Made by a program: the position numbers and the translations under genes
The notes under the pieces: model-generated
Databases searched by the model: none
What the model was told of the DNA's origin: nothing
The model's input: the letters and a program-made list of their open reading frames with translations, nothing else
Origin: Anaerolineales bacterium HSG25
GTDB taxonomy: Bacteria > Chloroflexota > Anaerolineae > 4572-78 > J111
Assembly: GCA_030377865.1 (NCBI GenBank)
Contig: JAUCGA010000008.1
Span: 1 to 64,000 of the forward strand
DNA: 64,000 bases
Reading direction: 5' to 3'
Shown: in pieces, positions 4,729 to 62,585 of the stretch
Numbering within the stretch: the first letter of the stretch is position 1
Layout: every line of letters begins with the position of its first letter

Positions 4729-6225
4729 ATGTTGAGAGCGATAGCTAGAAAAACGAAACGAACCTTAATTGAAACAACCGACGAACTTCGAGACTCGGCC
4801 ATTGTGGGCTGGGAACATGTCGAAAACAAGTTGGCCTTAACCTCCAACCATCGCAAAACCTCGGATGTGGTCTGGCTTGATTTGGGTGATTTAGGCGACT
4901 TGGTCAATCCCGATGGGCCGCATGAGCAGTGGCAGGATCATGGCTTAGGTCTGTTACGGACGATTCTATATCAGAATGATATAAAAACCGATCTCTTATC
5001 GACTCGTGCCGTGACCACTTGGGACAAACTGCGCCGACAGATAGCCGGATACAAAACGCTGATCATGAATATCCGCAGTTATACCTTTCCCGTGGCACGG
5101 CGAGCGGCGCAACTGTTTAAAGAGGTCAACCCCGACGGAATTATTTTAGCAGGCGGCATGCATGCCACCGTCGCGGTTGATGAGATATTGGCCATCCCAC
5201 AATTTGACCGAGTCTGCCAAGGCCCCGGCGAAGGGGTCATCGTTGACCTAGTGAAAGACCCGCTCTCGTTTGAGCGTAGCTTTGTCGGCATGGGAGCCAA
5301 ATCAATGGCTGACTGGCCGACGATTGATCGCACCTTATGGCCGAAACCACATCGTCGTTTGCAAGATAATTTTAACTGGCCTATGGAGCCAGAATGTGGT
5401 TGGGGGCCGCCGCCCGTTGCCACTATTTTGACTAGTCGGGTTTGCCCGTGGCAATGTGTGTTTTGTAACGAAAACTCATATATTCCCAACATGGGTCGTA
5501 AACCTGTTGACATGGTGATTGATGAGTTGAACGAACTGGATGAAAAATATGGGCTTGGCTCGTTTGTCATTCACGATTCGATGTTCTTTCAGCACCCGCG
5601 CTGGCTTAACGAATGGATTGAAAAATATCCCAAACGAGCTAATAAGATATGGCCATACTGGGCCGCGGGACGCTCTGACACGATTCGACAATGGCCGGAG
5701 CTATTTGAAACCCTCGTCCGCGAAACCAACTGGTCGATTCTTTCCATCGGGTTTGAATCGGGCAGTGACCGAATTTTGCGCTTGCTCAACAAAGAGTGTA
5801 CCGAAGAGGACAACCGATTCGCCATCAATTTAATCAACAAAATTGGGGCCGATTTTGAACAGGAAGGCAAAAAACCGCCCATGTTCTGGGCCAACATTAT
5901 GATGGGCATTCCGGGCGAAACCCGTGAGGATGCTTTTAAGACCATTCGCATGCTCAAAACCATGAAATACGTCTTCCCGTCGATTTCATATTATGCCCCA
6001 TATCCGGGGTCGGCACTAGGGTATCAACTGATTGCCGAAGGTAAGAGCATGATGTCCAAAGATGATTATCATCGTTTCCCCGGCGACGAAAAAGTAAAAG
6101 GGATCGACTATCAATTTTACCGCGAGCTATTGGCCGGCAAGTACGATGAGCAGGTCAATAAGGGTATCGAGCAACAGAACTATCATGCCGAAACATCGTA
6201 TGACGAGGCGTTGATTAAGGCATAA
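4729..6225 (+). CDS. B12-binding-type radical SAM protein
   Basis: A 498-residue radical SAM enzyme. The N-terminal half (about 50-200) has the Rossmann-like pattern of cobalamin-binding domains of BchE-type proteins (LIMNIRSYTFPVARRA, IILAGGMHATVAVDE). The [4Fe-4S]-binding cysteines are C239, C243 and C246 (CPWQCVFC). A downstream segment with SILSIGFESGSDRILRLLNK and MMGIPGETREDAFKTI is typical of the B12-radical SAM group. The strict corrinoid DxHxxG motif is not visible, so corrinoid binding is unproven. The substrate is unknown. A second protein of the same architecture is at 10068. Start ATG at 4729; gaga..gtaag upstream is only a weak ribosome site. Confidence 0.85.
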   Translation: MLRAIARKTKRTLIETTDELRDSAIVGWEHVENKLALTSNHRKTSDVVWLDLGDLGDLVNPDGPHEQWQDHGLGLLRTILYQNDIKTDLLSTRAVTTWDKLRRQIAGYKTLIMNIRSYTFPVARRAAQLFKEVNPDGIILAGGMHATVAVDEILAIPQFDRVCQGPGEGVIVDLVKDPLSFERSFVGMGAKSMADWPTIDRTLWPKPHRRLQDNFNWPMEPECGWGPPPVATILTSRVCPWQCVFCNENSYIPNMGRKPVDMVIDELNELDEKYGLGSFVIHDSMFFQHPRWLNEWIEKYPKRANKIWPYWAAGRSDTIRQWPELFETLVRETNWSILSIGFESGSDRILRLLNKECTEEDNRFAINLINKIGADFEQEGKKPPMFWANIMMGIPGETREDAFKTIRMLKTMKYVFPSISYYAPYPGSALGYQLIAEGKSMMSKDDYHRFPGDEKVKGIDYQFYRELLAGKYDEQVNKGIEQQNYHAETSYDEALIKA

Positions 6226-10067: not shown

Positions 10068-11621
10068 TTGAAAATATTATTAGCTAGTCCAGAATCGGAC
10101 GTTTGGAACAGTCGAAAACATATCCACATGGGGTTGGGGTATTTGGCCGGAAGTTTACGGACACATGGCTATAAGGTTGATATTTGGGATGCCTCGATTG
10201 AGGTTGATTTTGAAACATTGGATGAGCGACTAACTCGCGACCCATACCATATTATTGGACTCTCTGCTCCTACACCCTTGATTGTGAATGCTTGGGAAGC
10301 GGCTATCAAAGCCAAACGGCGCGGAGTTTTGACGATTTTGGGTGGCCCCCATTTAACCCTCATGCCGGATGAATCGATGCACAAAGACGCGGTCGATTTG
10401 GTGGTACGTGGTGAGGCGGAATACACCATCATCGAAATCATGCGAGCCTTAGAGAAAGAGGCCGAGATTCGTCAAGCTAAAAATTTACCGCCGATTTCGA
10501 CTATTTCGTCACCCCATTTGAATGGTTCTCACAAGGGTAACGGAACGCATGGTTCAACCGAACTCAAGCCGCAACTGTTTCATGCTGAGGCCGGATGGGG
10601 GTCGATTATGGGACTGTCATGGCGCAATCGTGATGGTAAAATAGTCCATAATATGGAGCGGATTTTGCCGAATGATATTGACGCGATTCCCTTTCCGGCC
10701 CATGACATGTTCAAGATTGACCGCTACACCAACCTGAATCCGCTGACCGAAGGATTGGATATGGCCTCCCGAACCTACACCATCGTTACCTCACGAGGGT
10801 GTCCCTATAAATGTATCTACTGCTCCAAACCGATTACCGGCGATACATGGCGGGCACGCAGTGTTGATAATGTGGTGGCCGAGTGGGAGTGGTTGGTTAA
10901 AGATTTGGGCGCTACTGAAATCGGGGTGACGGATGATATTTGGAACCATAACCGTGACCGAGCTAAGGATTTGTGCCGAGCGATTATCAAGGCCAATATC
11001 AATCATGTGCCGTGGGTGACGGTGCATGGTATGAAGGTCAACAATACTGATCGCGAACTGTTTGATCTGATGAAACAAGCTGGATGTAAGCGGGTTGGGT
11101 TTGGGATTGAAAACGGTGACGACTGGATGTTGCGAAATATCATCAAAAAAGGGCAAACGGTTGACATGGTGCGTCAGGCGATGGGGCATGCCAAAGCGGC
11201 AAAATTGGAGACGATGGGCTTTTTCATCTTTGGCATGCCCGGCGAAACGGTGGAATCGATGGAAAAAACTATCAACCTAGCTTTAGAGCTTGACCCTGAT
11301 TTGGCTCATTTTATGATGGCCGCCCCGTTCCCCGGAACCGCCATGTGGGAGACCCTGAAAGAGCATGGCGATGTTTTCTCTGATCAAATGGACTGGTCAC
11401 AGTTGGCGATTCAAAGTGATCGTGCTCATTTTGCATTTGGTGAGTTAGACAAAGAGACAGTTGAGAAAAAATTCCATGAAGCCCACCGACGTTTTTATCT
11501 ACGTCCGCATCGTATGGCTCGTATTTTGAAACGAAAAGATACATGGATGCGTTTCCCCTATTACTTAAAAACAGCAGGCAACATGCTGGTCGGTTTGGGA
11601 GACCGAGAACCCGCGGCGTAG
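10068..11621 (+). CDS. B12-binding-type radical SAM protein (BchE-like architecture)
   Basis: A 517-residue protein starting at TTG 10068. The N-terminal domain (1-140) shows the layout of cobalamin-binding radical SAM proteins (MGLGYLAGSLRTHGYKVDIW, ILGGPHLTLMPDES, VVRGEAEYTIIEIM). The SAM/iron-sulfur cysteines are C245, C249 and C252 (RGCPYKCIYCSKP). Further signatures are KRVGFGIENGDDWMLRNIIK and FFIFGMPGETVESMEKTI. This family includes methylases and ring-forming enzymes such as those acting on lipids, porphyrins and peptides; the substrate here is unknown. A linker at about 140-170 is rich in Asn/Gly/His (LNGSHKGNGTHG). It resembles the protein at 4729 in layout. Confidence 0.85.
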   Translation: MKILLASPESDVWNSRKHIHMGLGYLAGSLRTHGYKVDIWDASIEVDFETLDERLTRDPYHIIGLSAPTPLIVNAWEAAIKAKRRGVLTILGGPHLTLMPDESMHKDAVDLVVRGEAEYTIIEIMRALEKEAEIRQAKNLPPISTISSPHLNGSHKGNGTHGSTELKPQLFHAEAGWGSIMGLSWRNRDGKIVHNMERILPNDIDAIPFPAHDMFKIDRYTNLNPLTEGLDMASRTYTIVTSRGCPYKCIYCSKPITGDTWRARSVDNVVAEWEWLVKDLGATEIGVTDDIWNHNRDRAKDLCRAIIKANINHVPWVTVHGMKVNNTDRELFDLMKQAGCKRVGFGIENGDDWMLRNIIKKGQTVDMVRQAMGHAKAAKLETMGFFIFGMPGETVESMEKTINLALELDPDLAHFMMAAPFPGTAMWETLKEHGDVFSDQMDWSQLAIQSDRAHFAFGELDKETVEKKFHEAHRRFYLRPHRMARILKRKDTWMRFPYYLKTAGNMLVGLGDREPAA

Positions 11622-18000: not shown

Positions 18001-18465
18001 ATGGATCGTAATAAAACCGCACCGCTTGCGAATATAGAGCAGATAAAAAAGAGGCTAGAACCATCCCACGAACCGTCGGTCTGGGTAGGCAAAGCCCCTC
18101 GTATTTTGTACGTTGATGATCATTCAACCACTCGCGAAATTATGGTCTATATTTTTGAATCAAGTGGCGCTGACATTCTGTTAGCTGAGGATGGCCTAGA
18201 GGGGGTGGAGATGGCTCGGCGCTGGCAACCGGACATCATCCTCATGGATTTACGCATGCCTCGGCTGAACGGCTTCGAGGCGATTAGTAAAATTCGAGCC
18301 GACGAAGCTACGGCTCATATTCCGATTATCGTTACCTCAGCTTGGGCCAACGCCAAACACAAAAAACGCTCATCCGCGGCAGGCGCGAACGAGCATTTTT
18401 CTAAACCTGTTGACTTTAATCATCTGGTGAAGACGATTAATCGATATGTGAAACGTAATTCGTAA
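18001..18465 (+). CDS. Single-domain response regulator (CheY-like receiver)
   Basis: A 154-residue receiver domain protein with an about 32-residue N-terminal extension. Acidic pocket D39-D40, phosphoacceptor D83 (LMDLRMPRLNGF), T112/S113 and K135 (FSKPVD) are all present. There is no output domain, so it probably acts in a phosphorelay or by protein contact. No histidine kinase gene is adjacent; the nearest kinases are at 54.6-58.9 kb. A gggggaa sequence precedes ATG 18001. Tandem attcgta units lie directly after the stop. Confidence 0.9.
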   Translation: MDRNKTAPLANIEQIKKRLEPSHEPSVWVGKAPRILYVDDHSTTREIMVYIFESSGADILLAEDGLEGVEMARRWQPDIILMDLRMPRLNGFEAISKIRADEATAHIPIIVTSAWANAKHKKRSSAAGANEHFSKPVDFNHLVKTINRYVKRNS

Positions 18466-53243: not shown

Positions 53244-53816
53244 TTATTGCGTTTCGTAGGCTGTGCCACTAAAGCGACTCGCTCCATCAGGTTTGTCCTG
53301 AGTTAAGGTCAGTTGGTTGCTAGTTGTACCATCTACATCACGAACTGTGATTATTGTCGTAACACTCATGTCGGTGCCAAATCCGGTGCAGACACTATAA
53401 CTAATTTTGCCCTGATACCCATCTCCGGTACGGGTAAACTGTTTGACCTCGAACACCGAACGCCGCCCTGATGGGGCAAACTCGGTCTCTTGGCTGATGG
53501 TCATGTTGTCAGCCATGCCGTTTCTGTTTGCATAGTTAAATGTAATCTCGTAAGTGGTTCCTTTGGCCCCATTTGGCCCATCACACCCGTTGATGTCGAT
53601 TACAATGCGATTCAGTTGGCTGATGGTAAACACCGCGGTTGACCCTTGGGCATGAGCCGGAAGTTGCCCAACTTCAATAATCGGTTTTATCCATTGACCG
53701 GGTAACATCGTCGTAGCGATTAATCCACCACTCAGGGCGCTTAGATTTTGCAGTATACGCCGACGGCTGACTATGTTGTTTTGGTCGGGTAATCTATTTT
53801 TATTTGTCATGGTCAT
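53244..53816 (-). CDS. Tat-exported protein of unknown function
   Basis: A 190-residue protein with a twin-arginine signal (SRRRILQNLSALSGGL) and probable cleavage after PAHAQ. The leader end WIKPIIEVGQLPAHAQGS recurs in small exported Chloroflexota proteins that I know only as hypothetical. The mature part is beta-rich with a conserved Cys pair (DINGCDGPNG, YSVCTGFG). ATG 53810 (third residue) has the better-spaced aagga. Folded export suggests a cofactor or rapid folding. Confidence 0.7.
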   Translation of the reverse strand: MTMTNKNRLPDQNNIVSRRRILQNLSALSGGLIATTMLPGQWIKPIIEVGQLPAHAQGSTAVFTISQLNRIVIDINGCDGPNGAKGTTYEITFNYANRNGMADNMTISQETEFAPSGRRSVFEVKQFTRTGDGYQGKISYSVCTGFGTDMSVTTIITVRDVDGTTSNQLTLTQDKPDGASRFSGTAYETQ

Positions 53817-54646: not shown

Positions 54647-57055
54647 TCAGTTCGGAACAACAGGCACGGTAAACCAAAATTCAGAGCCAACCCCTTCCGA
54701 ACTTTTTACCCCAATTTTGCCACCGTGTAGCTCTACCAACTGTTGACAGATTTTTAAACCCAACCCAGTACCACCATATCGGCGGGAGTCTGACATATCC
54801 ACCTGTTGAAACGATTGAAAGATTAGTTCTACCTTATTTGCAGGAATACCAATCCCCGTATCTTTTATAGAAAAATAAACTTTATTATTAACCGTTGATC
54901 GCACATTTTCTTCAAGTGATACCTGAATTGTTATCACACCTTTCTCGGTAAATTTGATGGCATTGCCCACCAAATTTAACAAAACCTGTTTCAAACGGGT
55001 ATGGTCAGCCCAAATAGGACGTAAGCTGTCGGAAATAATCACCTCAATTTTGATAGGTTTTTCTTTAATGTGTAATTTTGTTGAAGCCAATACCTCATCA
55101 ATAAGTTCTTGCACATCTAAGGATTGAGGGGTAAGTTGTACCTGACCAGATTCTATTTGGGAGATGTCCAGAATATCATTGATAAGAGCTAACAGATGCT
55201 CACCACTTTCATGAATCAACTGTATATCTTCTTTTGCCGATTCTGGTAGCTCACCGCTTAGACCAAGAAGTAATAGTTCAGAAAAACCGTTGATGGCATT
55301 TAGAGGTGTTCGTAACTCATGGCTCATTACAGTTATAAACTGTGATTTAGCTCGGTCTACCTCTTGTAACTTAGCAATTGTAGCCTGTCTTTCGGCTAAC
55401 AACCGAGCATTGTCAATGGCGATTGCAGTTTGGTTAGCAATTGAATGTAAAAGTGAAATATCTGCGGGAATGAAACGGTCAATCTGTTCACTTTGAACAT
55501 CTAAAACGCCCAGTACCTGTTCTCCTTTACGAAGCGGTATCGCTAACTCTGAGTTTGTATCCGGTAATAAGGGATTACGGAAAAACTGATTGGATTGGTT
55601 GACATCGTTGATTACACGAAATTTACCTATACTGGCTACCTGCCCCACGATTCCTTGTCCCATCTGCAAGCGATGATCTTCCTTCTTGAGTTTGCGACCG
55701 ACTTCTCCAGATCCCTCAAACATTACAAGCTCATTTGTTTCCGTTTCTATCACATAAAGATGAACATGATAGAAATTAAATTCAGTTTGAATACGATTAA
55801 CCACATATTCTAGTAATTCACTTATATCTAGGATAGCGGTAAGTTGGCGACTAATTGCGGCGCTTGTTTCCAAGGCTTGGGTACGTTTTTGAACCCGCTC
55901 CTCGAGGGTGGCTAACAACTCTTTTAGTTGGGTTGTTCGTTCCTGAACCAACTTCTCTAAATGGTTACGATGTTCGGTTAACTCCTGTTCTGTTTTTTTA
56001 CGCTCTGTAATATCACGAATAATCAGCGTAGCATGGTTATTAACGGGTCGGATTTGTAAATGAAAATGCCGTTTCAGTTGACTATCTTCAACCTCAATTT
56101 TGGCAGACTGAGTTTCATCCAACGTTGTCCAAACTTGGCGAGGGAAAGTTTCTAGATAACAGGTGGGGTCGGTACAATCAGGATGAAAAATACGATGCAA
56201 TTTTTTGCCTTTAATGTCGATTGTTTCTCCTAAATCCCATCGTTCTAAGGTTTGGTTAGCCCGTACAACCCGCAATTGGTCATCAAGCAGGCATACAAAC
56301 TCAGTTAACGAATCGACAGTTGCCTCCCACTCTTTCTTAGCTCGTTCAATTTGTTTCAAAGATGTTAGAGTTTTGACTTCGGCTTGTTTGCGCTCATTAA
56401 TCTCGGTTTGTAACTTTTTATTCGTCTCCGTAAGTTCTTCTGTACGTGCTGAAACCTCTGTCTCAAGATTATGACGTAAAGATTCCAAAGTTATTAGGGT
56501 GTTGTAGGTTCGTAAACCGGTGATGATAGCCGTAAAAAGTTTATCTGCTGTAAGTTCAGTTTTGAGCTTGTAATCATCAATCTCGTACTGTTCGATGACT
56601 GTTCTTTCGGGAGCATACCCGGGTTGTCCGGTACGTAAAATGATACGTGCAAAAGGATTGTTCAACTCTTGTCGAACATATTTTACCAATCCCAGGCCCG
56701 CATCTCTACTCTCCATAACAACATCGAGCAAAATAAAGACTATATCGGGGTGGTTATGTAAAATTTGACGTGCCTCTTCCGCTGAATAAGCATGTAATAG
56801 TTTTAGGGCTTTATTTTGGTAAGTAAAGCCAGTTAGAGCCATTTGGGTGACAACATGGACATCCTCATCATCATCTGCTACGAGAATTTTCCAAGTACCA
56901 GTTATCGTCTCTAACGGTTCATCCTTATCATTTTCTGCTAGGAGAAGCGGATCATCATCAAAAAGCGGGTCATCATCACTAAAAAGCGAGTCGCCATTAT
57001 CAAAAAGAGAGTCACCATCACTAAAGAGATTATCTGTTTGATCTTTATTGCTCAT
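54647..57055 (-). CDS. Receiver-PAS-GAF sensor histidine kinase
   Basis: 802 residues. The acidic N-terminus with repeated SLF units (DSLFDNGDSLFSDDDPLFDD) is followed by a receiver (about 55-185; acid pocket VADDDED, phosphoacceptor Asp in FILLDVVMES, and LRTGQPG), a coiled region, PAS (about 240-355), another coil, GAF (about 405-555), HisKA with the phospho-His in VMSHELRTPLNAI, and HATPase (DTGIGIPANKVELIF, GGTGLGLKICQQLVELHGG). It overlaps the upstream DUF1638 kinase gene by 11 bases, with a ggag site, hence the ATG at 57055. It may take phosphate from that kinase on its own receiver. Confidence 0.9.
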   Translation of the reverse strand: MSNKDQTDNLFSDGDSLFDNGDSLFSDDDPLFDDDPLLLAENDKDEPLETITGTWKILVADDDEDVHVVTQMALTGFTYQNKALKLLHAYSAEEARQILHNHPDIVFILLDVVMESRDAGLGLVKYVRQELNNPFARIILRTGQPGYAPERTVIEQYEIDDYKLKTELTADKLFTAIITGLRTYNTLITLESLRHNLETEVSARTEELTETNKKLQTEINERKQAEVKTLTSLKQIERAKKEWEATVDSLTEFVCLLDDQLRVVRANQTLERWDLGETIDIKGKKLHRIFHPDCTDPTCYLETFPRQVWTTLDETQSAKIEVEDSQLKRHFHLQIRPVNNHATLIIRDITERKKTEQELTEHRNHLEKLVQERTTQLKELLATLEERVQKRTQALETSAAISRQLTAILDISELLEYVVNRIQTEFNFYHVHLYVIETETNELVMFEGSGEVGRKLKKEDHRLQMGQGIVGQVASIGKFRVINDVNQSNQFFRNPLLPDTNSELAIPLRKGEQVLGVLDVQSEQIDRFIPADISLLHSIANQTAIAIDNARLLAERQATIAKLQEVDRAKSQFITVMSHELRTPLNAINGFSELLLLGLSGELPESAKEDIQLIHESGEHLLALINDILDISQIESGQVQLTPQSLDVQELIDEVLASTKLHIKEKPIKIEVIISDSLRPIWADHTRLKQVLLNLVGNAIKFTEKGVITIQVSLEENVRSTVNNKVYFSIKDTGIGIPANKVELIFQSFQQVDMSDSRRYGGTGLGLKICQQLVELHGGKIGVKSSEGVGSEFWFTVPVVPN

Positions 57056-58901
57056 GATGTTCTCCAATATTTAAGGGTAAAACAACCACAAATAGTACTC
57101 CTTTCCCCAACTCGCTTTCGCAATGTATACTACCGCCAAGTTTTTGAGTGACAATGTTATAAACAATATGTAACCCCAATCCCGTACCAATCTGTTTATC
57201 AGAGGTAAAGAATGGGTCGAATATTTTGGGGAGTGTATCTTCTGAAATACCTTTCCCATTATCCTGATAAGTCAATATTAGTTGATCATTATCGGTTTTG
57301 GCGACAATTTTTATCTGTCCTTGAGCCTGATTTTGAAACCCATGAGTCTGAGAATTAACAATTAGGTTGGTTATTATCTGGGCCAACGCGCCGGGGAAAC
57401 TGGTCAATTCGATTATTTCATCACACTCTAACTTAACGTCAATTTTAGTTGGGCCTTCTTGAAGTTTCGGTTTAAGACTAACAAGTATATCTTTTAATGA
57501 GGATTTTAGCTGAAAATTAGATCGGTGTTCCGAGATTTGGTCTACCGAAACACGTTTAAAACTTTTAACTAACTCATCGGTTCGGTATAAATTGCTTAAA
57601 ATTAGTTGACTTGTATCGTATGTTATCTGTAAATATTGCTGTAAATCCTGTCGTCGCATGTTGTTCGTCTTGAATATCTCAACAAACTTTTTTGTTTTTC
57701 CCAACAAGTTCGAGGAGGCGGTAATACTTGTTCCTACTGGTGTATTTATTTCGTGAGCGACTCCAGCAACTAGACCACCAAGAGCGGCCATTTTTTCAGA
57801 TTCAATCAACTGTTGCTGAGTTTCTTGTAAATCTTTTAAGGTCTCGACTAATTGGTTTCTCTGCTCGGTAATTAGCTGATATTGGCGGGCGTTGGCAATT
57901 GCCAAGTCGCATACCCCGGCAATACTCAAGGCTAAGTTTAGATAATATTCCTTATATTCTGGAAACGCTATCTGTTCAACTTCTAAAATGCCTTGTTGTC
58001 CGATTCGTAACCGAAATCCCTGACCCGATTCTGTCCACACATGCTCGTTAGTCAGGCTCGCCAATCGTTTTTGTACCGTCACCTCATCAGCCGGTGGGGA
58101 TGACCATGAGCGTCGGATACGACCTAATCTTTCCTCTCGTAACGGTAAGTATGATAGTTCTCCGGGGGCGCAAAGCATGGTAAACAGTTCGAGCATACCT
58201 TCAATAACCTCCTCCTCTGTTTTCATGCTAGAGAAGCTACTCATCAAATCAAAGGTCATGGTATGCTCAGATAACTGACGATTTTTATCAGATAACGTTG
58301 TTTCGGTCTTTTTCTGTTCTTGGGTTAAGCGCCACTGTAAGACGATTTCTGTTAATGTCAGTTTTAAGTAATCTAAACCAATGGGGATAATTTCGTAAGG
58401 TAGCGCGACAAATTCGGAAAATTCTTGGATACGTTGAAAGCTCTTTTCATCAACACCGGTGTCCAACAACAACAACCGACTAGCAGACTCGCGGAAAAAC
58501 TCGCGCCCTAACTCACGGTCAAATTGCCACTCATCTAGTTGACGTTTCCAACGAGCCAACCAACCGGGCGTTATGAGATAAGCCCCACTCCTAATATAGC
58601 TATCAATTATGGCCCTGCTGGCAAACAGATGGAAACATTGCTGTATCTTGTGAATATGATAATGTTCTAACTCTGCGGGGGCATCTGTTAGCTGAATGAT
58701 ACAACGACTGCCAAATATATTAACTTGACCGAGATTATCCTGCCTAGAGTTAGCCAACTCTAGCGTGTCCCACGTGGTTGGCGGACGACCACATTTGGCC
58801 GGAAAAGTGGAGACAACCACATCATCCCATCCTTCGGACTTGATAATCGCTTCTATTTCTCTTTTGAAAAATCCACACATCTGAATACAGAGTTTAGTCA
58901 T
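57045..58901 (-). CDS. Histidine kinase with N-terminal DUF1638 sensor domain
   Basis: 618 residues. Residues 1-190 match the DUF1638 pattern: CGFFKREIEAIIKSEGWDDV, SRCIIQLTDAPAEL, and GAYLITPGWLARWKRQLDEW then LLLLDTGVDE. Stand-alone DUF1638 proteins are found with corrinoid methyltransferases. A weakly conserved GAF-like region follows, then the phosphorylated His in GLVAGVAHEINTPVGT and HATPase motifs (NLIVNSQTHGF, YQDNGKGISEDTLPKIFDPF, GTGLGLHIVYNIV). No membrane segment, so cytosolic. It lies in an operon with the corrinoid protein and methyltransferase, and I infer that it senses the methylation or redox state of the corrinoid. Confidence 0.85.
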   Translation of the reverse strand: MTKLCIQMCGFFKREIEAIIKSEGWDDVVVSTFPAKCGRPPTTWDTLELANSRQDNLGQVNIFGSRCIIQLTDAPAELEHYHIHKIQQCFHLFASRAIIDSYIRSGAYLITPGWLARWKRQLDEWQFDRELGREFFRESASRLLLLDTGVDEKSFQRIQEFSEFVALPYEIIPIGLDYLKLTLTEIVLQWRLTQEQKKTETTLSDKNRQLSEHTMTFDLMSSFSSMKTEEEVIEGMLELFTMLCAPGELSYLPLREERLGRIRRSWSSPPADEVTVQKRLASLTNEHVWTESGQGFRLRIGQQGILEVEQIAFPEYKEYYLNLALSIAGVCDLAIANARQYQLITEQRNQLVETLKDLQETQQQLIESEKMAALGGLVAGVAHEINTPVGTSITASSNLLGKTKKFVEIFKTNNMRRQDLQQYLQITYDTSQLILSNLYRTDELVKSFKRVSVDQISEHRSNFQLKSSLKDILVSLKPKLQEGPTKIDVKLECDEIIELTSFPGALAQIITNLIVNSQTHGFQNQAQGQIKIVAKTDNDQLILTYQDNGKGISEDTLPKIFDPFFTSDKQIGTGLGLHIVYNIVTQKLGGSIHCESELGKGVLFVVVLPLNIGEHHEQ

Positions 58902-58985
58902 TGTGAGTAAGGGAGTAAGGGAGTAGGGAATAGGGGAGTACGCTTACTCCCTCTACTTCCCCCTACTCTCATTACTTCCACCAAA

Positions 58986-60029
58986 TTAAATCTCTATCGG
59001 ATAACGTCCCCATTTATGTACGGCTTCGGAGATGCCCAACAGTACTTCTTCTGGAACTTGCCACGGGATTTCACCATGATTGTCAGCCATAATATATCCA
59101 CCGCCCGGCCCAGCTTTGGCAATGGCATCTTTGACGATTGTTTCAGTTTGCTCTGGAGTCCAATTACGCATCTCAATACCGTTCAGATTACCCAAAACGG
59201 TTAGTTTGCCTTTACATGCGGCCTTCATCTCAGCTAAATCCTCGTCAACACTGGTACCAACAACCACCGTACCAGTTTGAGCAATATCACCAACAATAGG
59301 CAAACAGCGTCCCGAAGCTACATGGGTAGCCGTCGGGCCGTTAATCCGAGCAATGGTTCGTTTGGCAATTTCAAACCCTGTTTTGAGATACATGTCGCGG
59401 GTGGAGATGGTGACAGAGGAAACTGGGTCAAAGTAACATATCGCCGTCGCTCCAGCCTCTAGTTGAGCATTCGCCCATGCTACGCAGAACTCCTCATTCT
59501 TTTTCATTAGCAAATTAAACAAATCAGGTTGTTCATACATTAACTCAATATATTTATCAAACCCCATCTGCATAACCGGCAACGAGAAGGGAGAGACAGC
59601 TACTCCAATGATGGGCGCATCATCGCCAACCTTTTCCTTCATCATGTTAATCGCTTTTAGGGCCTCGCCCAAACATTTGGATTCCTTAACGTTGGGGGGT
59701 TCAACTGTCTTGATATCTTCGGGCTTACGAATAAACGGTCGCCCCGAATTTGGCGGGCCATTTTCGACATAAATAACCTCTCCTCCCCAAGCTTCAACCT
59801 CAATAGGGGCATAAAAAAGGCCATTAAGGCAATCATGTCGATATTTAGCCCGCATACGAAGTTGCCCTTCAACCACATTTTCTGCTTTGGAAAAATACTC
59901 TTTAATAGATAGACCTAACTCTTTGGCTCCATGCATGGTAACGAGTAAAAATAACGGTACTCTATCCGGCTCTTGGTGGCCTAAGGTTGTCAGAACACGT
60001 TGTAATGATGTCATTGTTGTTTGGGTCAT
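58986..60029 (-). CDS. MtaA/UroD-family corrinoid-dependent methyltransferase-like protein
   Basis: A 347-residue TIM-barrel protein of the uroporphyrinogen decarboxylase superfamily (RVLTTLGHQEPDRVPLFLLV, FDPVSSVTISTRDMYLKTGF, LTVLGNLNGIEMRNWTPEQT). Members such as MtaA and CmuA move methyl groups between methylcobamide and a thiol. The zinc motif is atypical: H236-V-A238 stands in place of HxC, C242 follows shortly after, and near the end the sequence is IMADNHGEIPWQVP where MtaA has a cysteine. It overlaps the corrinoid gene by 4 bases, which supports a methyl-transfer partner role over heme synthesis. Confidence 0.82.
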   Translation of the reverse strand: MTQTTMTSLQRVLTTLGHQEPDRVPLFLLVTMHGAKELGLSIKEYFSKAENVVEGQLRMRAKYRHDCLNGLFYAPIEVEAWGGEVIYVENGPPNSGRPFIRKPEDIKTVEPPNVKESKCLGEALKAINMMKEKVGDDAPIIGVAVSPFSLPVMQMGFDKYIELMYEQPDLFNLLMKKNEEFCVAWANAQLEAGATAICYFDPVSSVTISTRDMYLKTGFEIAKRTIARINGPTATHVASGRCLPIVGDIAQTGTVVVGTSVDEDLAEMKAACKGKLTVLGNLNGIEMRNWTPEQTETIVKDAIAKAGPGGGYIMADNHGEIPWQVPEEVLLGISEAVHKWGRYPIEI

Positions 60030-60649
60030 GATGCACCTGCCATAACTTTATTAATTACCTCAACCGCTTCAGAAGCATTTTTACACATCATATCTGCTCC
60101 TACCTCTTTATATAGGTCAGGATCAAATCGGAAAGGGGCACCACCAACGATAACTTTCATCCCATCATTGAGCTTGGGAATAACTTCCTTAATTCGTAAC
60201 GCCGAAGGAAGCATCAGCGTCGAGATTAACAATACTTTAACTCCCTCCTCATTTGCCCGTTGAGTAAGACCGGCTACGTCGGTTCTACCATAATCTTTCA
60301 CTGTAAAACCACTGGCACGCAAGATAGAATAAACAATTCGTTTGCCCAATACATGATAATCCTCAAGTACCGTAATTGCCATGTTGTGTTGTTCTTTGCG
60401 GCGAGAATCTTTGGGTGGCAAAACTGTGTCAATTAACTTCTCGCATATCCGTCCGCTCATGTAAAGTTGAGATAAGGCGACCCCTCCTTGTTCCCACCCG
60501 TCACCAATACGTTCTAGGGCGGGAACGACAACCTGCTCTACAAACTCCATTGGTGACTTGTCTTTTAATGCTGAAGCTAATATCTCCTCAGCCGCTAACT
60601 GGTCGAGAGCCAAGAGCGCTTGTTCAAATTGTTCTACTCGTTGTGTCAC
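60026..60649 (-). CDS. Corrinoid protein (B12-binding methyltransferase subunit)
   Basis: 207 residues. N-terminal helical cap domain (1-88) and a B12-binding Rossmann domain with the D97-x-H99-x-x-G102 motif (DYHVLGKRIV) carrying the lower-ligand His, then LLISTLMLPSALRIKEVIPK and VIVGGAPFRFD. It matches the MtaC/MtbC-type corrinoid proteins of methyl transfer systems. The GTG at 60649 with aaggag 10 bases upstream is the better start; the upstream ATG in the longer frame has no ribosome site. Confidence 0.9.
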   Translation of the reverse strand: MTQRVEQFEQALLALDQLAAEEILASALKDKSPMEFVEQVVVPALERIGDGWEQGGVALSQLYMSGRICEKLIDTVLPPKDSRRKEQHNMAITVLEDYHVLGKRIVYSILRASGFTVKDYGRTDVAGLTQRANEEGVKVLLISTLMLPSALRIKEVIPKLNDGMKVIVGGAPFRFDPDLYKEVGADMMCKNASEAVEVINKVMAGAS

Positions 60650-61313: not shown

Positions 61314-61523
61314 ACTACGGATTGGTATTTTGCACGGAAAATCCTAGAGGGTCCTAAATGTATTCGGGATACTCTTTAACGACTTGCATATTTGTTATAT
61401 CTCCTTTATAGTGAAATTGAATGAAGCATTGGCTTAGTAGTACAGAACAATTGTTTTTTATTGGCAAGTTGTTGTACAAAATTTACGGCGATGGTCATGG
61501 CTTTTTCTTAGGTGTTGAAATTA

Positions 61524-62585
61524 ATGAATAAGCAACTTTCTGAGTTTTCAATTACAATTACAATTTATAGCCGTCTTCGTGAAGGAATTAATGTTAAATT
61601 TTATGTGCGTAATTTGTGTGGCACAACAAAAGATGAAAACCTTGAATATGTCAGAAAAATTCAACAAGAAATTGTTGACGAAATTTATTTTCTAACGGGT
61701 TACGGTATTGATAAAGGCGTTATCCGGTATGATGGTAAGATAGTCAAACAGGATATTTTTTATGGACTTGAACCTCGTTTTGAAAAGATTGATAGAGATG
61801 GCTGGTTTTCACATAAAGTAAAATTTTCCATCGGGAGTTTTTATTACTGCTCTGGTAAAGTATATAGCTTTAGGCGTGGCAATCCTCGATATCCTTCTTT
61901 TTCTTTGCCTTGTATCTTTATTTCCTCACAAAGGGCCAAGGAATTTGATATCAACGGTCTTACCCGCCCTTTTTTCATCTCAAATAGTTTTCGCTATGAC
62001 AGAGAGAATATTGTCATCAAGAACTTTCTTGATCGTTTTGATGAGCATGGGAATTTGAGCTTTGGGAAGTATCGATATTACACCTCGATACAAAAAGGCG
62101 GAATTTTTGAACTTGCAACGTTGTGGTACGGTTGTTATACACCCAAACAAAAACGTCAAGGTAAAGGTATATCAAACCTACAAACGGTTAAGTTAGCCAG
62201 TAAACCATTAGAGCAAGATAAGCCTGTTTTCAAAACGTCAAAACTGGCTGGATTACCATTAGATGGAACTGATTATGTTTACCTCATCAAAATGGGGCGG
62301 CATAATGTTTATAAGATTGGCAAATCCAATAACCCACAAGAAAGATTGAATGGTTTACAAACTGCCAGCCCCTATAGATTGAAACTACTCCATGCCTTCA
62401 AAGCTGATAATGCTTCTGCGGCTGAGGAAGTTTTGCACCAAGCATTGCATCATGTACGGATGGAGGGAGAGTGGTTTAAATTATCTGAAAAGCAACGAAA
62501 TACGGTTCTATCCATATCGACATATCGAGATAAACATTTTATTGTGGATAACAAACAAGTAACGATTGAAATACTGTTGCGATAG
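61524..62585 (+). CDS. GIY-YIG-like (MUG113/T5orf172) C-terminal domain protein
   Basis: 353 residues. The first 230 residues are a beta-rich region with no recognised family (EFSITITIYSRLREGINVKF). Residues about 250-335 form a T5orf172/MUG113 GIY-YIG-type nuclease domain: DYVYLIKMGRHNVYKIGKSN, NPQERLNGLQTASPYRLKLL, AAEEVLHQALHHVRMEGEWF. The family usually lies in phage or defence loci. ATG 61524 is chosen over the in-frame GTG 61512. It is flanked by repeats and has lower GC content than its neighbours, so it may be recently acquired. Confidence 0.7.
   Translation: MNKQLSEFSITITIYSRLREGINVKFYVRNLCGTTKDENLEYVRKIQQEIVDEIYFLTGYGIDKGVIRYDGKIVKQDIFYGLEPRFEKIDRDGWFSHKVKFSIGSFYYCSGKVYSFRRGNPRYPSFSLPCIFISSQRAKEFDINGLTRPFFISNSFRYDRENIVIKNFLDRFDEHGNLSFGKYRYYTSIQKGGIFELATLWYGCYTPKQKRQGKGISNLQTVKLASKPLEQDKPVFKTSKLAGLPLDGTDYVYLIKMGRHNVYKIGKSNNPQERLNGLQTASPYRLKLLHAFKADNASAAEEVLHQALHHVRMEGEWFKLSEKQRNTVLSISTYRDKHFIVDNKQVTIEILLR

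What the first reader, a model, noticed from the sequence alone, without database searches (positions are those of the whole stretch)
54647..60649. Corrinoid methyl-transfer genes fused in one operon with DUF1638 and two-component kinases
Four overlapping or closely spaced minus-strand genes: a corrinoid protein (DxHxxG), an MtaA/UroD-type methyltransferase, a histidine kinase whose sensor is a DUF1638 domain, and a receiver-PAS-GAF kinase. DUF1638 usually stands alone beside corrinoid methyltransferases; here it has become the input of a kinase. The model is that methyl or redox state of the corrinoid is read by the kinase and passed to the receiver of the second kinase. No output gene is seen in the operon, so a response regulator elsewhere (for example that at 18001) may take part.
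Basis: partly seen in the sequence, partly recalled or inferred. Interest (0 to 1): 0.85.

Follow-up and report, generated by a model that had tools for sequence, protein, structure and literature searches.

The report
Corrinoid methyltransferase module wired to kinases
Four adjacent genes look like a sensor built from a vitamin-B12 methyl-transfer pair and a little-known helper domain (DUF1638) fused to a signalling kinase; relatives attach the same helper to other signalling outputs, and one sits among methanol-use genes, so bacteria may use B12 methyl chemistry to sense one-carbon compounds.

Summary
The minus-strand operon (60649-54647) encodes a corrinoid protein with all cofactor motifs, a UroD-family protein, a DUF1638-GAF-histidine kinase (DUF1638 E=7e-11, above Pfam's cut-off) and a REC-PAS-GAF-histidine kinase. 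It is not unique. The corrinoid/UroD/DUF1638-GAF block recurs with swapped outputs: histidine kinase (same genus; Azoarcus KH32C plasmid), hybrid kinase-receiver, or diguanylate cyclase (nine genomes of another family). In that family the UroD subtype and the fusion occur in exactly the same 12 of 41 genomes. Azoarcus keeps all four genes in order (UroD 64% identical), beside fae, fhc and a PQQ methanol dehydrogenase. Unfused operons also exist, and a separate DUF1638-PAS-kinase family stands beside a B12-like protein and an OmpR regulator near rdhA at 15 of 15 loci examined. The UroD lacks MtaA's zinc cysteines; a zinc-free donor:corrinoid methyltransferase (CdmB-like) fits better. Best reading: an enzyme-based C1/methyl-donor or corrinoid-redox sensor in which DUF1638 is the transducer and the second kinase's receiver the likely next step. 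Ligand, methyl transfer and phosphotransfer are untested. In the held literature DUF1638 appears only as a B12-reactivation protein.

The parts
60026..60649 (-). corrinoid protein (B12-binding_2 cap plus B12-binding domain, DxHxxG), 207 aa from GTG 60649; longer ATG frame from 60712
   Evidence: Pfam PF02607 E=7e-15, PF02310 E=4e-15; motif alignment; AAGGAG before the GTG
58986..60029 (-). UroD-family protein, 347 aa, without the MtaA Zn cysteines
   Evidence: PF01208 E=7e-55; nearest solved structure 4ay7 MtaA E=4e-16; 51-82% identical subtype in other modules
57045..58901 (-). DUF1638-GAF-histidine kinase, 618 aa (H383 phospho-acceptor)
   Evidence: PF07796 E=7e-11 above cut-off, PF02518 E=2e-23; 53% full-length relative in G001
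58317..58901 (-). DUF1638 input domain, residues 1-195, with C9, C37, C67, C89
57867..58316 (-). GAF-like domain, residues 196-345 (no Pfam call), carried with this DUF1638 subtype in all fused relatives read
57045..57866 (-). HisKA/HATPase catalytic part, residues 346-618, a subtype shared with other kinases of the family
54647..57067 (-). REC-PAS-GAF-HisKA-HATPase kinase, 806 aa (TTG 57067 or ATG 57055)
   Evidence: Pfam; REC alignment with intact D, T, K residues; Azoarcus counterpart

Best explanation
The operon encodes a sensor made from a corrinoid methyl-transfer system. The UroD protein acts as a zinc-independent methyl-donor:corrinoid methyltransferase, or at least as the binding protein for a small methylated/C1 compound, and loads the corrinoid protein. 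DUF1638 is elsewhere a partner of corrinoid methyltransferases linked to B12 reactivation; here it contacts the corrinoid protein and reads its methylation or Co redox state, perhaps through its Cys-rich, metal-site-like residues. The GAF domain passes the change to HisKA/HATPase, and the phosphate goes to the receiver of the REC-PAS-GAF kinase. In relatives the same input drives a hybrid kinase or a diguanylate cyclase. Shown: domain content, conserved operon, exact co-occurrence, output swapping, co-inheritance. Inferred: methyl transfer, what is sensed (methanol or a similar C1 donor, from the Azoarcus neighbourhood only), contact with DUF1638, phosphotransfer, target genes.
For: Same block, different outputs: HK in G000, G001 and Azoarcus; HK-REC in G757 and G749 (G747 with a broken DUF1638 frame); GAF-GGDEF in nine f71 genomes (GGEEF intact in the six inspected); PAS-HK-REC in G368. 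The UroD subtype and the fusion occur in the same 12 of 41 f71 genomes, with a sharp gap to other UroDs (at least 51% against at most 29% identity). Distances of UroD, corrinoid protein and DUF1638-GAF correlate (r=0.88-0.94, permutation p=0.0002), although relatedness inflates this. Azoarcus KH32C pAZKH has the four genes in the same order beside fae, formylmethanofuran dehydrogenase and PQQ methanol dehydrogenase. Unfused corrinoid-UroD-DUF1638-kinase operons with overlapping genes in G148 and G017. A second DUF1638-kinase family with a B12-like partner and OmpR regulator near rdhA, 15 of 15 loci. DUF1638 is needed with RamA for B12-dependent methionine synthesis (PMC5764234). CdmB is a zinc-free UroD-fold chloromethane:corrinoid methyltransferase (PMC13222342). 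No RamA gene and no other small corrinoid protein were found in G000.
Against: No biochemistry. The methylotrophy link rests on one plasmid. G001 has the first three genes but no REC-kinase after them. G054 lacks UroD in the operon and its kinase has N in place of the acceptor His. G368 has lost the DUF1638 cysteines. Two GAFn kinases (G038, G254) have no DUF1638 beside them. G000 is 80% complete, so absences are soft.
Confidence: 0.6

Rival explanations
1. An ordinary metabolic corrinoid methyltransferase operon that carries its own regulator: corrinoid protein and UroD demethylate a substrate for metabolism, and the kinases control expression by sensing something else through GAF and PAS.
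For: DUF1638, corrinoid and UroD proteins are metabolic in other bacteria. GAF and PAS domains are general ligand sensors. The Azoarcus block lies in a methylotrophy island.
Against: No methyl-acceptor gene was recognised in the module in any locus read. No RamA in G000 or G001. DUF1638 is covalently fused to the signalling protein and stays with GGDEF as well as HK outputs.
Confidence: 0.25
2. The kinases sense corrinoid supply or redox state (free cobalamin, Co(II) against Co(I)), not a methyl donor; UroD is a vestigial scaffold or corrinoid-binding protein.
For: The MtaA Zn-site cysteines are absent. G054 and the rdh-linked kinases have a DUF1638 kinase without UroD. The rdh-linked kinases stand near corrinoid-dependent dehalogenases. 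DUF1638 is linked to B12 reactivation.
Against: UroD is the most conserved part of the block (64% to Azoarcus against 52% for the corrinoid protein and 34-41% for the kinase parts), which argues for a specific active or binding site.
Confidence: 0.12
3. Light sensing by adenosylcobalamin, as in CarH or AerR, with the corrinoid protein as photoreceptor for the kinase.
For: The corrinoid protein has the cap plus Rossmann layout also found in CarH (NCBIfam CarH 43 bits, cut-off 400).
Against: pyl_corrinoid and MtbC models score higher; the conserved UroD partner has no known role in light sensing.
Confidence: 0.03

Closest known systems
MsmS / RdmS methyltransferase-associated sensor kinases of Methanosarcina acetivorans (PMC6944256)
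   Same: sensor kinases tied to methyl-transfer genes; multiple PAS/GAF domains; redox sensing shown
   Different: MsmS senses by haem and RdmS by thiols, and both lack the acceptor His; neither is described with DUF1638; here the whole corrinoid/UroD pair is conserved with the sensor and the output is swappable
DUF1638 plus RamA-like B12 reactivation system of the split methionine synthase in Phaeobacter inhibens (PMC5764234)
   Same: DUF1638 working with a stand-alone corrinoid protein
   Different: there DUF1638 is a separate metabolic protein; here it is fused to kinases or a diguanylate cyclase and RamA is not found in the window's genome
CdmBCA chloromethane methyltransferase of Acetobacterium dehalogenans (PMC13222342)
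   Same: zinc-free UroD-fold methyltransferase plus corrinoid protein
   Different: catabolic, with an acceptor methyltransferase (CdmA) and no kinase reported
MtaA / MtbA methylcobamide:CoM methyltransferases
   Same: UroD family; nearest solved structure 4ay7
   Different: Zn-site cysteines absent; no CoM context; below family cut-offs
RdhPS two-component systems next to rdhA in Dehalogenimonas and Dehalococcoides (PMC13390414)
   Same: cytoplasmic kinase plus regulator near rdhA; the f66 kinases found here, probably this group, carry DUF1638
   Different: PAS instead of GAF, a B12-like partner without DxHxxG, an OmpR-type output and no UroD

Membership tests
DUF1638 (PF07796) | score above Pfam gathering cut-off | tested here: met
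   42.7 bits against 27; also met in G001, G054, f71 and f66 relatives; Azoarcus is below it (22.5 bits) but aligns with the window domain at 39.5%
DUF1638 (PF07796) | conserved Cys/His positions (C9, H/C37, C67, C89) | tested here: met
   window has C9, C37, C67, C89; stand-alone members mostly have H at 37
Corrinoid protein of methyltransferase systems | cap and B12-binding domains with DxHxxG, SxL, GG | tested here: met
MtaA/CmuA methyltransferase (TIGR01463) | curated score cut-off | tested here: not met
   105.7 against 235.4 bits
MtaA/CmuA methyltransferase (TIGR01463) | His-x-Cys...Cys zinc site | tested here: not met
   HVA in place of H-x-C and DNHGE in place of the last Cys; the Cys are absent in all block relatives; the role of these residues as Zn ligands is from memory
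Zinc-free UroD-fold methyltransferase I (CdmB type) | methyl transfer from donor to corrinoid protein | not testable with these tools
   needs biochemistry
Histidine kinase (two-component) | HATPase domain and H-box histidine | tested here: met
   HisKA itself below cut-off (17 against 26.9 bits) in the window protein
Two-component system | receiver with intact active site next to the kinase | tested here: met
   REC of the 806-aa protein
MsmS/RdmS-type methyltransferase-associated kinase | haem-binding or redox-active thiol sensor domain | tested here: inconclusive
   Cys-rich DUF1638, but cofactor unknown

The most novel reading that the evidence does not exclude
A general class of enzyme-based sensors: a corrinoid methyltransferase pair no longer used for carbon flow, in which DUF1638 reports the methylation or redox state of the corrinoid to interchangeable outputs (kinase, hybrid kinase, c-di-GMP synthase) and which controls methylotrophy, and in a sister form reductive dehalogenation.
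Probability: 0.4. Interest if true: 0.92.

Novelty: new variant of a known kind. Interest (0 to 1): 0.8.

Why it matters
How bacteria sense methylated compounds for corrinoid pathways is largely open: the Cdm study says no regulatory system is identified (PMC13222342), and for Dehalogenimonas rdhA the kinase input is unknown (PMC13390414). This finding names a candidate input domain with a recognisable partner protein, in a named strain (Azoarcus KH32C) where it can be deleted and assayed, and it gives DUF1638 a testable second role as a signal transducer.

Tried and rejected
Genome-contig scan with the whole kinase found only a general kinase. Profile search of the DUF1638-GAF region against PDB gave no meaningful match. 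The GAF of the fused proteins and that of the unfused kinases could not be shown to be one family (hhalign probability 5.8%), so the fusion is not proved to be the simple joining of those two genes. Viral contigs: none. Rfam: no riboswitch near the operon. Promoter and terminator scans at chance level. G021 has the UroD (82%) but its contig ends 100 bp downstream: uninformative. A link to the receiver at 18001 is rejected for lack of evidence. A single origin of the two DUF1638-sensor clades is neither shown nor excluded (unrooted tree).

Full report
OBSERVATION. The four genes are present and intact on the minus strand. Pfam confirms B12-binding_2 and B12-binding, URO-D, DUF1638 (42.7 bits, cut-off 27) with HATPase_c, and PAS-GAF-HisKA-HATPase. 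The corrinoid gene most likely starts at GTG 60649, preceded by AAGGAG. Genes 1 and 2 overlap by 4 bp, genes 3 and 4 by 23 bp, and 84 bp separate genes 2 and 3.

THE UROD PROTEIN. Its nearest solved structure is MtaA (4ay7, E=4e-16), but it falls well below the MtaA/CmuA cut-off. The H-x-C motif reads H-V-A and the distal Cys region reads DNHGE; the cysteines are absent in all relatives of the block. In G001 the His is also lost. Thiol activation as in MtaA is therefore unlikely. A zinc-free UroD-fold methyltransferase that moves a methyl group from chloromethane to a corrinoid protein is known (CdmB, PMC13222342), so loss of the Zn site does not argue against methyl transfer.

RELATIVES OF THE BLOCK. 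In the same genus (G001) corrinoid, UroD and DUF1638-GAF-HK are conserved, without the REC-kinase downstream. In the class search the fused form was found in 4 of 396 genomes: G000, G001, G054, G368. At phylum level six f71 genomes appeared; a family search found 12 of 41. There the block reads corrinoid - UroD - DUF1638-GAF-GAF-GGDEF in nine genomes, with GGEEF intact in the six inspected, and DUF1638-GAF-HK-REC in G757 and G749; G747 has UroD, a broken DUF1638 frame and GAF-HK-REC. The matching UroD subtype is found in exactly those 12 genomes. Trees of UroD, corrinoid protein and DUF1638-GAF keep GGDEF and kinase forms apart to the extent they are resolved, and distances correlate.

A NAMED RELATIVE IN ANOTHER PHYLUM. 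A plasmid search hit Azoarcus sp. KH32C pAZKH (NC_020548.1), where a cobalamin-dependent protein, UroD (64%), DUF1638-GAF-HK (39.5% / 34% / 41% for its three parts) and a REC-HK-REC protein (REC 44%) follow each other in the window's order. Upstream lie fae and formylmethanofuran dehydrogenase/formyltransferase genes, downstream PQQ methanol dehydrogenase and its accessory genes. This is the only clue to the ligand: a C1 compound. It is one locus.

UNFUSED AND PARALLEL FORMS. G148 and G017 have overlapping corrinoid - UroD - DUF1638 - GAF-kinase genes; G136 shows the last two at a contig end. The B12-like protein is related to the window's corrinoid protein (hhalign 95.9%, E=6e-9) but lacks DxHxxG. 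The DUF1638 of this group and of the window's group are separate, well-supported clades. A report on Dehalogenimonas states that what these kinases sense is not validated (PMC13390414).

DUF1638. Across stand-alone and fused members C9, H/C37, C67 and C89 are conserved, like a metal site; fused members mostly have C at position 37 where stand-alone ones have H (alignment is uncertain around position 67 for f71). G368 has lost them. The only functional data in the held literature are genetic: DUF1638 is needed with a RamA-like protein for B12-dependent methionine synthesis (PMC5764234). Three papers mention the domain and none of those read describes it as a sensor.

MECHANISM. The consistent input with exchangeable outputs is the signature of a sensory module. 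In the window's genome no RamA and no second small corrinoid protein were found, which argues against bulk methyl metabolism, though the genome is 80% complete. Kinases of this catalytic subtype are often followed by a protein with the same REC type, with or without DUF1638 (G003, G011, G004, G005), which supports phosphotransfer to the REC of the 806-aa kinase. Ligand, methyl transfer, DUF1638 contact and phosphotransfer are inferred. The final output in the window organism is unknown.

LIMITS. Genome handles are anonymous; sampling within class and phylum is partial; the co-occurrence test is not corrected for relatedness; no biochemical evidence exists; the DUF1638 structure model was unusable.

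Noticed in passing
L163, L164, L165, L185-L196: B12-like protein, DUF1638-PAS-histidine kinase and OmpR-type regulator cassettes near rdhA in Dehalococcoidaceae-like genomes; DUF1638 may be the unknown input of RdhS-type kinases.
   Followed up: partly
L034:2843-4621: DUF1638-GAF kinase with Asn in place of the phospho-acceptor His (ISNDLSAPL), next to a second stand-alone DUF1638 and flanked by REC-containing proteins.
   Followed up: partly
L232:7197-7823: HD_5 (HD-GYP-like) phosphohydrolase close to the Azoarcus module; with the GGDEF outputs elsewhere it hints at a c-di-GMP link.
   Followed up: no
L212:6615-9272: Two further REC proteins directly after the DUF1638-GAF-HK-REC hybrid of G757, possible downstream regulators.
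   Followed up: no
L233, L234: Kinases with the same N-terminal GAF as the unfused operons but no DUF1638, UroD or corrinoid gene in the fetched 15 kb.
   Followed up: partly
window 61512-62585 (+): Protein with MUG113/T5orf172 (GIY-YIG-like) domain upstream of the operon, apparently unrelated.
   Followed up: no
window 53244-53816 (-): Twin-arginine-like signal protein of unknown family downstream of the operon.
   Followed up: no
window 10068-11621 (+): Radical SAM protein with B12-binding domain (a second at 4729-6225 was hit only weakly, below cut-off).
   Followed up: no
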